A stretch of 64,000 bases of DNA. Origin: Gammaproteobacteria bacterium (lineage in GTDB: Bacteria > Pseudomonadota > Gammaproteobacteria > Steroidobacterales > Foliamicaceae). Position numbers and translations under genes: made by a program. Where the stretch lies: contig JAPOTY010000009.1 in NCBI GenBank assembly GCA_026708965.1, positions 42,951-106,950 of the forward strand. The letters are read 5' to 3'. The notes under the pieces were generated by a model. It was not told the DNA's origin, searched no databases, and worked only from the letters and a program-made list of their open reading frames with translations. Below, piece by piece: positions 60,956 through 63,956 of this stretch (the stretch's first letter is position 1; every line of letters starts with the position of its first letter).

Positions 60956-60999
60956 TTGACGAAACGCTATATGGCCATATACTTCGAGTATGGCCATAC
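60956..60999 (+). promoter_or_regulatory. Promoter with two palindromic operators over the vapB start
   Basis: TTGACG (60956-60961), 16 nt, then TATACT (60978-60983) is a strong sigma70-type promoter. The expected start site is about 60989-60991, that is at the ATG (60990), so the mRNA may be leaderless; no Shine-Dalgarno is seen. A perfect 14-bp palindrome TATATGGCCATATA (60968-60981) overlaps the -10, and a second, GTATGGCCATAC (60988-60999), covers the start codon. Their centres are 19 bp apart. They are likely sites for autorepression by the antitoxin. Confidence 0.65.
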
Positions 61000-61274
61000 C
61001 CACTATCAAGTCAACCTATACTCTCGATTTAGGTTCAGTCCGTGCGCTTGAATCGCTGGCGCAGCAATGGCAGGTTTCCAAATCCGAAGTGCTGCGGCGA
61101 GCCATTCGCATGGCAGCTTCCATAGCCTACCCGGATAAGACAGGCCCTCTGCAAGCGCTAGACCGGCTGCAATCCTCCGTGCGGGAGCGCGGAGTTGATC
61201 TTTCCAGTTGGGAGCAGGAAGTCATTGCTGAACGCCGCGAAACCGGAAAGCGGGCATTCCCGAATGCTCCATGA
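60990..61274 (+). CDS. RHH antitoxin of a VapBC module
   Basis: 94 residues. 'STYTLDLGSVRALESLAQQWQVSKSEVLRRAIRMA' is a ribbon-helix-helix domain, and the C-terminal tail 'LSSWEQEVIAERRETGKRAF' would contact the toxin. It is ATGA-coupled to the PIN toxin. The ATG lies inside a palindromic operator. Confidence 0.85.
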   Translation: MAIPTIKSTYTLDLGSVRALESLAQQWQVSKSEVLRRAIRMAASIAYPDKTGPLQALDRLQSSVRERGVDLSSWEQEVIAERRETGKRAFPNAP

Positions 61275-61645
61275 TCCAACTAGACACTAGCTTTCTGATT
61301 CGGGCTCTTGTCCGGGGGGCGCCGGAGGACCGGAAGCTGCGACGGTGGCTCGAAGCCGGCCAATCCCTGAGCATGAGCGCGGTTGCCCGGGCCGAACTGC
61401 TGTGCGGACCACTAACCCCGGATGAGTTGGAATTCGCCTCGAAAGCGGTTGGGCAACGCCACGAGTTCACGGACGACCAAGCGGTGATCGCAGCCCGTCT
61501 TTTCAACGAATCAGGCCGCCGCCGCGGGTCTTTGCCCGATTGCATGATCGCGGCCACGGCCCTGTCTCACGGCGCCGCATTGGCCACCGCAAACGAAGCC
61601 GACTTCCGTCGGCTGGAAGGCTCAGGAATCACCTTGGCCGACTGA
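61271..61645 (+). CDS. PIN-domain RNase toxin
   Basis: 124 residues. 'QLDTSFLIRAL' (first Asp), 'MSAVARAELLCG' (Glu), 'GSLPDCMIAATA' (Asp) and 'TANEADFRRL' (Asp position, here D in 'EADF') give an apparently intact active site. It is translated from an ATG overlapping the antitoxin stop. It is probably an RNase that inhibits growth when free. Confidence 0.87.
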   Translation: MIQLDTSFLIRALVRGAPEDRKLRRWLEAGQSLSMSAVARAELLCGPLTPDELEFASKAVGQRHEFTDDQAVIAARLFNESGRRRGSLPDCMIAATALSHGAALATANEADFRRLEGSGITLAD

Positions 61646-61822: not shown

Positions 61823-61853
61823 TTGAAAACGGGGGGGGGGGGGGGGGTATAGT
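61823..61853 (+). promoter_or_regulatory. Putative phase-variable promoter: poly-G spacer
   Basis: TTGAAA (61823-61828, 5 of 6 matches to the -35) and TATAGT (61848-61853, 5 of 6 to the -10) are separated by 19 nt, of which 17 are G (61831-61847). The optimal spacing is 17, so loss of two G would make a strong promoter, and further changes would weaken it. This is the design of phase-variable promoters such as Neisseria porA. An AGGGG ribosome-binding site follows 7 nt before the ATG at 61885. Confidence 0.6.
61831..61847 (+). repeat. Homopolymer tract of 17 G
   Basis: An uninterrupted run of 17 G in a region otherwise AT-richer than the genome. Tracts this long are hypermutable by slipped-strand mispairing, and their length in an assembly may represent a mixture. 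Confidence 0.9.
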
Positions 61854-61884: not shown

Positions 61885-62616
61885 ATGACACGACTGATGA
61901 GGACGGGCGCGGCGACGCTGGTGGCGCTTGGGATCGCTGGGCTGCTGCCCCTCGCCGCCTTGGCGCAAACGATCGGGTTCAAAGAGCGAACTCAGACTGA
62001 GTTTGAAGAGGTGCACACAAGTGAGCATTTAAAATGCATGAGAATGGACGGTCGCAATCATCTCAAACTTACCTCCGATACAAGTATTCCAAATGGAACG
62101 GAAGTCACGTATGTGGTGCGAACTGTGGAAGGGCATGACATGTTCCGTAATCATGGCGTCCAAGCATGGCTGGCCCCAGGAAGTAACCTTTCAGAATTGC
62201 CAGGTAATGTCATAACCGCTATGACCTCTGGGTCTGGCACAGAAGTGTATTTACCAGGTTTATGCTGGGCGGATAACCTTATTGACGGTAGTAGGCCACC
62301 TCGATTCTATTCCGTTATTGAAGTCTCTCTGGTCAGTGTAAGCGGCTTTTCGATAGACTTTGGGTCGCATAGTGCACGTTACGTTATTGCTGACAACGAT
62401 GTATGCGACAGGATTGATTTAGAACCCAAGAATAATAATGGTATCGTCTATCAGATAAGAAATGGACGTTCCTGCGTCTGTGCCAAAAAGAGCACGGTCG
62501 TTCAGGCAGGCATCGACGACGGGGAAACGGAATCCTACGCCACGACGGCCTTGAATTGGCGCACCGATTCCACAAACTACTGTCCGGACTCCCCCTACCA
62601 GAGGCCAAGGAACTGA
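61885..62616 (+). CDS. Secreted cysteine-containing protein, poly-G-controlled
   Basis: 243 residues. A clear signal peptide (basic n-region 'MTRLMR', core 'ALGIAGLLPLAA', cleavage near 'LA-QTIG') precedes a mature domain with six cysteines ('LKCMR', 'GLCWAD', 'DVCDR', 'SCVC', 'NYCPD'), an even number that suits disulfide bonds outside the cytoplasm. I do not recognise the family. Codon use is AT-richer than the surrounding genes, implying recent acquisition. Its 3' half is duplicated at 63619-63956. Expression is likely set by the G tract in the promoter. Confidence 0.8.
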   Translation: MTRLMRTGAATLVALGIAGLLPLAALAQTIGFKERTQTEFEEVHTSEHLKCMRMDGRNHLKLTSDTSIPNGTEVTYVVRTVEGHDMFRNHGVQAWLAPGSNLSELPGNVITAMTSGSGTEVYLPGLCWADNLIDGSRPPRFYSVIEVSLVSVSGFSIDFGSHSARYVIADNDVCDRIDLEPKNNNGIVYQIRNGRSCVCAKKSTVVQAGIDDGETESYATTALNWRTDSTNYCPDSPYQRPRN

Positions 62617-62821: not shown

Positions 62822-63545
62822 TTATTGAAGCGTCACGGTTACGAAACAATAATACCCGTGGCAACCGTTCCCCCTGGGGAAGGGATAATCATATACCATA
62901 CCCCGCTTGAAGCCTCCCTGTTCGCCCCGAAGCTCGACCCGGAAAGTCGTCCCCGGCTGGGGGTTGCCGCACAGAAATTTGTTCATGTCGAACTGCTTGG
63001 ACATACCCCATTCAGTCCATTCGAAATGGCCGATTTCCTTGAAAATCCCCGTTCGATGCGCCGCGCTGATCTGATCCCCCGATTGGCACGCGCCACGGGC
63101 ATAGTTCGCGCTGCCGTGAGGTGTCCCGTAAATTTCCGTATCATTGTATTTGCCAAAATCTTTGATGCTCCCGTCATCACCATCCCGGTAAGCAACGATA
63201 TTGACCACATTGCTAAACTTGACGTTGATTCTATTGGCTCTCATCGTTGTGCCGCGAACAACGCGGGCTGGCGGCATGGTAAGTGTCATAATGCCGGAAT
63301 TGATATTGAGAGTGGCGTTTGGGTTACGCGTGTTGGGGTTTTCGCCTTCGATCGGACAGTACCGCATCGAAACGGGAACCCTCTGCTCCCCCTTGGACGG
63401 GTGATTGTATATCCGGTATCCACGCTCGCAGTCTTCAGCAGTGTAGGCGTACACCGACCCCGTCATAAGCAACGCCACCAGCGCGGCGGTGATTGTTGCT
63501 AATTTAGCAAGGGGGGGGGGGGTATTTACTGGTTATTCGTTTCAT
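62822..63545 (-). CDS. Secreted cysteine-containing protein, out of frame by a poly-G tract (phase OFF)
   Basis: The ATG at 63545 has a perfect Shine-Dalgarno (AAAGGAGC, 8 nt spacing). It begins 'MKRITSKYPP' and then meets a run of 12 C (complement of 63511-63522), after which the frame hits TAA ('PPPPC' stop). With 11 C the frame continues as 'LAKLATITAALVALLMTGSVYA-YTAEDC', a normal signal peptide and a 240-residue protein ending at 62822. The span is 724 nt, 241 codons plus one. The mature part has six cysteines. A GTG at 63478 is the only in-frame start in this state and would lack the signal's n-region. Family unknown. Confidence 0.8.
63511..63522 (+). repeat. Homopolymer tract of 12 G inside a signal-peptide coding region
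   Basis: Twelve G on the + strand are 12 C in the leftward gene, covering about codons 8-12. Length modulo 3 decides whether the protein is made. Confidence 0.9.
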
Positions 63546-63566
63546 GTTGTTTGCTCCTTTCGGTTA

Positions 63567-63615: not shown

Positions 63616-63630
63616 CGTGATTCTATCACG
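63616..63630 (-). promoter_or_regulatory. Palindrome upstream of the leftward phase-variable gene
   Basis: CGTGAT-TCT-ATCACG is a perfect 6-bp inverted repeat with a 3-nt centre. On the minus strand it contains TAGAAT, one mismatch from a -10 hexamer. It lies about 70 nt before the ATG and may be an operator or promoter element. No good -35 is visible. Confidence 0.35.
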
Positions 63631-63956
63631 GTTTTATTGAAGTCTTGCTGATCAGCGTAGGCGACTTTTCGATAGATTTCCCTCGGAGCAGAGCACGTTA
63701 CGGTATTACTGACCTCGATATATGCGAAAACCCCGATCTTCTTATGCAAAATGAAGGCAAATTCTTTCAGATAAGAAATGAACGCACCTGCACCTGCACC
63801 ACAAAGAGCACGATCGTTATGCAAGGCATGGCCGAAGGGGAGACTGAATCTTACGCCACGAGCGCGCTGAACTAGCGCATTGATTCCACGAACTACTGTC
63901 CGGACTCCCCTTACCAGAGGCTAGGGAACTGAGCGGGACGCGGATCCGCCCGACAC
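63619..63956 (+). pseudogene. Silent 5'-truncated copy of the 61885-62616 gene
   Basis: This stretch aligns with 62302-62640 over about 338 nt. In frame it reads 'FIEVLLISVGDFSIDF', 'RARYGITDLDICENPD', 'FFQIRNERTCTCTTKSTIV', 'EGETESYATSALN', then a TAG where the intact copy has Trp, and continues 'STNYCPDSPYQR' to a TGA. It has no start, signal peptide or promoter. The cysteine positions and reading frame are kept, so it is either a recent pseudogene or a donor cassette for gene conversion. Confidence 0.75.

What the first reader, a model, noticed from the sequence alone, without database searches (positions are those of the whole stretch)
62822..63545. Second poly-G switch, inside the signal peptide, captured in the OFF state
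A perfectly placed Shine-Dalgarno and ATG at 63545 lead into 12 C, after which the frame stops. With 11 C it reads straight into a textbook signal peptide and a 240-residue secreted protein. Two independent long homopolymers controlling two convergent secreted-protein genes are very unlikely by chance in a GC-rich genome where other genes lack such tracts.
Basis: seen in the sequence. Interest (0 to 1): 0.9.

Follow-up and report, generated by a model that had tools for sequence, protein, structure and literature searches.

The report
Portable on/off switch for secreted proteins
An uncultured bacterium carries, inside the predicted export signal of at least seven different genes, a run of 9 to 14 cytosines that would slip in length and so likely switch each protein's export on or off, and the same gene-start-plus-run also sits on unrelated proteins in a distant bacterium, so it has likely spread as a portable switch.

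Summary
In detail: 63511-63522 is 12 G (12 C in the gene), the ATG at 63545 has a good ribosome site, its frame stops just after the tract, and another frame is open for 228 codons beyond it. It is not a lone oddity. The same leader (start, poly-C, xKL signal peptide) heads seven genes with different mature proteins here, and about 19 in a distant genome, JAPOSW (MutS 48% identical). Tracts of 9-16 C give both states: 4 of 26 are in frame. A natural relative, P0065, carries this gene's own leader in frame, and 26 of 159 relatives have a proline run there. The cassette pattern is absent from 395 other genomes of the order, eight of the same genus included. The partner tract at 61831-61847 lies between -35-like and -10-like boxes of the convergent, Calx-beta-like gene. 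Mismatch-repair genes are present. Best explanation: slipped-strand phase variation of a repertoire of exported proteins through a horizontally spread, switchable leader. No reads were available, so switching itself is inferred.

The parts
63554..63559 (-). Shine-Dalgarno AAGGAG of gene 2
   Evidence: sequence
63504..63545 (-). gene 2 start and present (out-of-frame) reading, MKRITSKYPPPPC then stop
63511..63522 (-). poly-C tract of 12 in the signal-peptide n-region: predicted translational switch of gene 2
62822..63508 (-). post-tract open frame of gene 2 (AKLATITAALV..., 228 codons plus stop): rest of the signal peptide and the mature protein
   Evidence: homologues
61823..61853 (+). predicted switched promoter of gene 1: TTGAAA (61823-61828), 19-base spacer, TATAGT (61848-61853)
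   Evidence: control
61831..61847 (+). poly-G tract of 17 in that spacer: predicted transcriptional switch
61885..62616 (+). gene 1, predicted secreted protein with a Calx-beta-like predicted core
63619..63956 (+). remnant of another gene-1 copy (3' part, 77% identical DNA, one TAG)

Best explanation
The 12-base poly-C run lies in the predicted signal peptide of a likely exported protein and, as assembled, puts the start codon out of frame with the rest, so it is likely a slipped-strand phase-variation switch that turns export on when the run changes length. It is one of at least seven such genes in the genome: all share one leader (ribosome site, short start, poly-C, xKL signal peptide) joined to different mature proteins, one family of which has a Calx-beta-like predicted core. 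The run lies in the n-region, so the number of prolines should matter little for export (inferred). The convergent gene 1 is likely switched at transcription instead, by a poly-G run that sets the -35 to -10 spacing. Leader and genes have likely moved between distant bacteria and recombined with each other. Each cell would then export a random subset of the repertoire, probably in answer to changing host or phage pressure (untested).
For: Same leader with 9-14 C on seven genes here and 17 strictly defined plus 2 more loci in G760. Lengths vary and both states occur: 4 of 26 in frame (L137 counted by hand). Orthologues L094 (14 C, out of frame) and L198 (12 C, in frame), 78% identical. P0065 has the window gene's leader in frame; 26 of 159 relatives have a proline run there. 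Identical leader DNA before the tract on unrelated proteins L045, L040 and, in another lineage, L199. Post-tract frames intact over 218-252 codons while the other two frames hold 126 stops in 3232 codons. All 7 clean tracts of 12 or more lie at the 5' end of a predicted secreted-protein gene. Cassette in 1 of 396 genomes of the order. mutS and mutL present.
Against: No reads or population data. All seven loci here are out of frame from their SD-linked starts, though an upstream TTG at L094 would be in frame. In-frame loci are fewer than one third: 3 of 23 by the strict rule, P 0.026. None of 10 gene 2 relatives has a proline run, and some have tract-free signal peptides. Some loci in G760 are broken (L158, L165). 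Signal peptides were judged by hydropathy rules, not by a trained predictor.
Confidence: 0.85

Rival explanations
1. The tract lengths are sequencing or assembly errors and the genes are simply in frame and constitutive.
For: Both genomes are draft assemblies; 15 of 22 long tracts of the own genome lie near contig ends, many in garbled strings.
Against: The leader with a run recurs at 26 clean loci in two distant genomes and as proline runs in 26 of 159 relatives from several sources. An error of one base at a given locus stays possible; it would change the state, not the switch.
Confidence: 0.04
2. Translation starts at the internal GTG 63478 and the upstream start and tract are irrelevant.
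For: The GTG frame is open; the 95% identical P0001 is annotated from an internal Met.
Against: No SD-like sequence before the GTG, a good one before ATG 63545; the GTG start would cut the signal peptide that homologues keep; P0065 uses the upstream start.
Confidence: 0.03
3. The genes are decaying pseudogenes and the tracts are relics.
For: A broken gene-1 copy lies next door; L158 and L165 in G760 are broken; dN/dS is about 0.83 between gene 2 and L062.
Against: All seven post-tract frames here are intact, gene 2 and L062 share 203 codons without a stop, and in-frame natural copies exist.
Confidence: 0.04
4. The tract acts by transcriptional or ribosomal slippage, making a fixed low level of in-frame product from an out-of-frame gene, not by inherited length change.
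For: Most assembled loci are out of frame yet open; slippage on long C runs is known in general (recalled).
Against: Lengths differ between loci and orthologues in all three classes, as inherited variation would give. Both may act together.
Confidence: 0.04

Closest known systems
Helicobacter pylori sabA (PMC2715451, abstract and passages)
   Same: [quoted passage not shown] in- and out-of-frame alleles by slipped-strand mispairing.
   Different: One gene, CT repeat in the coding part and poly-T in the promoter; here poly-C in a shared leader of many unrelated genes, with the promoter-type tract on another gene.
Neisseria meningitidis phase-variable homopolymer loci (PMC5084427, passages; porA-type promoter spacers are recalled, no call)
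   Same: G/C homopolymers at gene starts and promoters of surface proteins; tracts of 8 or more are mostly variable there.
   Different: No portable leader shared by unrelated genes is described in the passages seen; different proteins and lineage.
Calx-beta and other eukaryotic-like proteins of sponge symbionts (PMC9531527, passages)
   Same: Calx-beta motif proteins are enriched across bacterial phyla there; gene 1 has a Calx-beta-like predicted core.
   Different: The text has no mention of phase variation (0 hits; likewise PMC8163846). That the window's organism lives in a sponge is shown by no call.

Membership tests
Slipped-strand (homopolymer) phase-variable gene | Homopolymer beyond chance, placed so that a length change alters frame or promoter spacing | tested here: met
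Slipped-strand (homopolymer) phase-variable gene | Length differs between related loci or strains, with on and off states | tested here: met
   9-16 C over 26 loci, 4 in frame; orthologues L094 and L198; P0065 in frame. Between loci and species, not between strains.
Slipped-strand (homopolymer) phase-variable gene | Mixture of lengths within one population, reversible switching | not testable with these tools
   no reads available
Sec-exported protein | Positive n-region, hydrophobic core, A-X-A-like site | tested here: met
   by hydropathy rule and by alignment to homologues; no trained predictor was used
Calx-beta domain (gene 1) | Profile match to the Pfam family | tested here: not met
   no Calx-beta hit for gene 1 or any of the 22 aligned members
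Calx-beta domain (gene 1) | Fold similarity to solved Calx-beta domains | tested here: inconclusive
   four best hits are integrin beta4 Calx-beta domains, E 7e-4 to 9e-4, but TM-scores by query length are only 0.27-0.33, the model's mean pLDDT is 65, and p53 core domains follow at E 2e-3

The most novel reading that the evidence does not exclude
A horizontally shared pool of switchable export leaders: one poly-C signal-peptide cassette recombines onto unrelated secreted proteins and travels between distant, probably sponge-associated, bacteria, giving each cell a random combination out of tens of independently switching exported proteins.
Probability: 0.6. Interest if true: 0.8.

Novelty: new variant of a known kind. 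Interest (0 to 1): 0.7.

Why it matters
Homopolymer phase variation is best known from mucosal pathogens (recalled). Here it appears as a whole repertoire in uncultured environmental bacteria, with the switch carried by the export leader itself and reused across unrelated proteins and distant genomes. If true, the partner-facing proteins of such bacteria are random within a population, single-consensus metagenome genomes misreport them (by a rough rule 36 of 159 relatives are annotated from inside the signal peptide), and the state of each switch can be counted in existing metagenome reads.

Tried and rejected
Viral origin: no relative of either family in IMG/VR. The samples are even draws, so carriers elsewhere are easily missed. 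Pfam gave nothing for six other tract-headed proteins, nothing for gene 2, and nothing for the long protein at the C33 end, which by eye I had taken for Calx-beta repeats. Gene 2's fold stayed unresolved (mean pLDDT 57.5, best Foldseek E 0.046). Loss of mismatch repair as cause: mutS and mutL are present. A fixed OFF state, suggested by seven of seven here, is weakened by the in-frame loci of G760 and by P0065. Habitat: the paper search for CAR2 found nothing; sponge origin is a guess from what I recall of such MAG series. Papers: no phase variation in sponge or marine symbionts in the listings of searches (15 of 146 listed; 15 of 17; 10 of 253); no shared phase-variable leader in those of 31 (12 of 12) and 86 (3 of 3). 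One of the 90 tract sites of G760 (C67:1383) was left out of the stretches by my oversight; contig-end sites were partly unreadable.

Full report
Observation. From ATG 63545 the assembled sequence reads MKRITSKYPPPPC and stops; after the tract another frame is open for 228 codons to 62822 and begins with a signal-peptide core. A tract of 17 G at 61831-61847 precedes the convergent gene 61885-62616. The only other G/C run of 8 or more in the window is one of 8, and no A/T run reaches 8. Models from the window expect 0.03 to 0.8 runs of 12 or more in the whole genome; the genome has 22, 15 of them near contig ends and mostly garbled, 7 with clean flanks. All nine genomes of the genus, the own one included, have at least one such run, against 8 of 49 other genomes of the order; several of the genus mates' runs are also in garbled or contig-end sequence, and none of the genus mates has the cassette.

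The tract belongs to a cassette. The flanks of the genome's other tracts show the same start on other genes: C3 (L034, 12 C), C14 (L040, 9 C), C22 (L051, 12 C), C26 (L054, 11 C), C27 (L058, 12 C) and C36 (L094, 14 C), besides the window gene. Each has an SD-like site, a short start, poly-C, then AKLA or a variant (ARLA, TKLA) and a hydrophobic core. L040 shares the window gene's leader DNA letter for letter from ATG to tract, yet the two mature proteins give no BLAST hit to each other. C20 ends in the same ATGAAACGA start, followed by 26 C and unreadable sequence. From the SD-linked start all seven are out of frame; at L094 a TTG 50 bases upstream would be in frame. Their post-tract frames run 218-252 codons without stops, while the two other frames of the same stretches hold 126 stops in 3232 codons. 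Of the 7 clean tracts of 12 or more, six are in a leader (C1, C3, C19, C22, C27, C36) and one in a promoter-like spacer. C1 (L032) differs: a complete signal peptide with its own Met follows the tract. With the limit lowered to 9, 15 of 22 such tracts have a signal-peptide-like frame just downstream, against 426 of 2000 random positions; some of the 15 look accidental (L038, L039, L042, L060).

A second genome. The only hit for gene 2 in the named genome collection is JAPOSW010000100.1, 'Gammaproteobacteria bacterium isolate CAR2_bin_8', 87% identical over 203 residues; its contig begins inside the gene. That genome (G760) has 90 tracts of 9 or more; I read 89 of the sites. Its MutS is 48% identical to the own one, against 81% and 86% for two genus mates, so it is a distant lineage. 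A strict rule (start with SD-like site, run of 8 or more C, then xxx-AAA-YTA) finds 17 cassette loci there and 6 in the own genome, 3 of 23 in frame (chance of so few at one third, 0.026). Adding L051 and L122 (out of frame) and L137 (in frame, counted by hand) gives 4 of 26. I do not lean on the shortage of in-frame loci. Of the 17, L158 and L165 have early stops, L141 is short, and five are cut by contig ends. One orthologue pair differs in length and state: own L094 (14 C, out of frame) and L198 (12 C, in frame), 78% identical. L199, of another protein family, has the window gene's leader DNA before 16 C. Leader-only similarity between otherwise dissimilar proteins recurs (own L058 with the window gene; own L094 with own L054; L116 with L121); at the protein level part of that could be shared signal-peptide composition, so the identical DNA is the stronger evidence.

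Natural in-frame copies. Among 159 relatives of three families (10, 30 and 119), 26 carry a proline run near the N-terminus (0, 4 and 22). P0065, MKRITSKYPPPLAKLAAVTAALVALLMTG, is the window gene's leader read in frame, on a protein of the L040 family; P0111 and P0115 begin MKRLMRLPPPP. In a few (P0023, P0124, P0154) the run precedes a complete signal peptide with its own Met. By a rough rule 36 start inside the signal peptide, as out-of-frame or cut genes would, 39 have a signal peptide without a run and 58 fit none of these. In the gene 2 family no proline run was seen, and P0002 begins MKRIT and goes straight to the hydrophobic core, so a version without a switch exists.

Gene 1. TTGAAA and TATAGT flank the 17-G tract with a 19-base spacer, two over the usual 17 (recalled), which would predict weak transcription in the assembled state. 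One other of 145 tracts scores as high: G760 L119, TTGAAA-16-TACAAT, before another protein with a signal-peptide-like stretch. Random junctions reach that score 26 times in 20000. Gene 1's predicted core resembles Calx-beta domains, with modest scores and no Pfam match. Its family in this genome comprises gene 1, L051, L094 and the remnant at 63619-63956.

Mechanism. Slippage in poly-C during replication would change the tract and put the start in or out of frame; slippage at gene 1 would change promoter spacing. MutS and MutL are present in both genomes, so absent repair does not explain the tracts. Shown: tracts, frames, recurrence, length differences between loci and orthologues, natural in-frame copies. 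Inferred: slippage in living cells, export in the on state, benefit to the bacterium, horizontal movement of the leader (87% identical gene 2 and identical leader DNA against 48% identical MutS). dN 0.087 and dS 0.105 between the window gene and L062 with no stop in 203 codons fit a fast-changing exposed protein, but the counts are small.

Comparison. It works like H. pylori sabA (tracts in promoter and 5' coding region; passages) and like meningococcal homopolymer loci (passages). What I did not find in the listings of searches is one phase-variable signal-peptide leader reused across unrelated proteins and distant bacteria.

Noticed in passing
60990-61645: A small ribbon-helix-helix gene overlapping a PIN-domain gene, arranged like a VapBC-type toxin-antitoxin pair (arrangement recalled), just upstream of gene 1's switch.
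   Followed up: no
63619-63956: A degraded third copy of the gene-1 3' end, 77% identical in DNA with one TAG, beside gene 2 and close to the contig end.
   Followed up: partly
L092 (G000 C33 end): Garbled poly-C runs directly before the open frame of a long predicted secreted repeat protein of at least 546 residues; no Pfam match.
   Followed up: partly
L046, L061, L097, L099 and other contig ends of G000: Several contigs end in long, garbled C/G runs, so assemblies may break at the longest switches.
   Followed up: no
L157 (G760): A sense poly-G tract of 13, in frame between MTYINKN and a signal-peptide core, so the switch may not be limited to poly-C.
   Followed up: no
P0046, P0047, P0048, P0050 (N-termini): A second shared leader type, MSLSFLSAVRRFPLFLPSAKLA and variants, on the L040 and gene-1 families; its DNA was not seen.
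   Followed up: no
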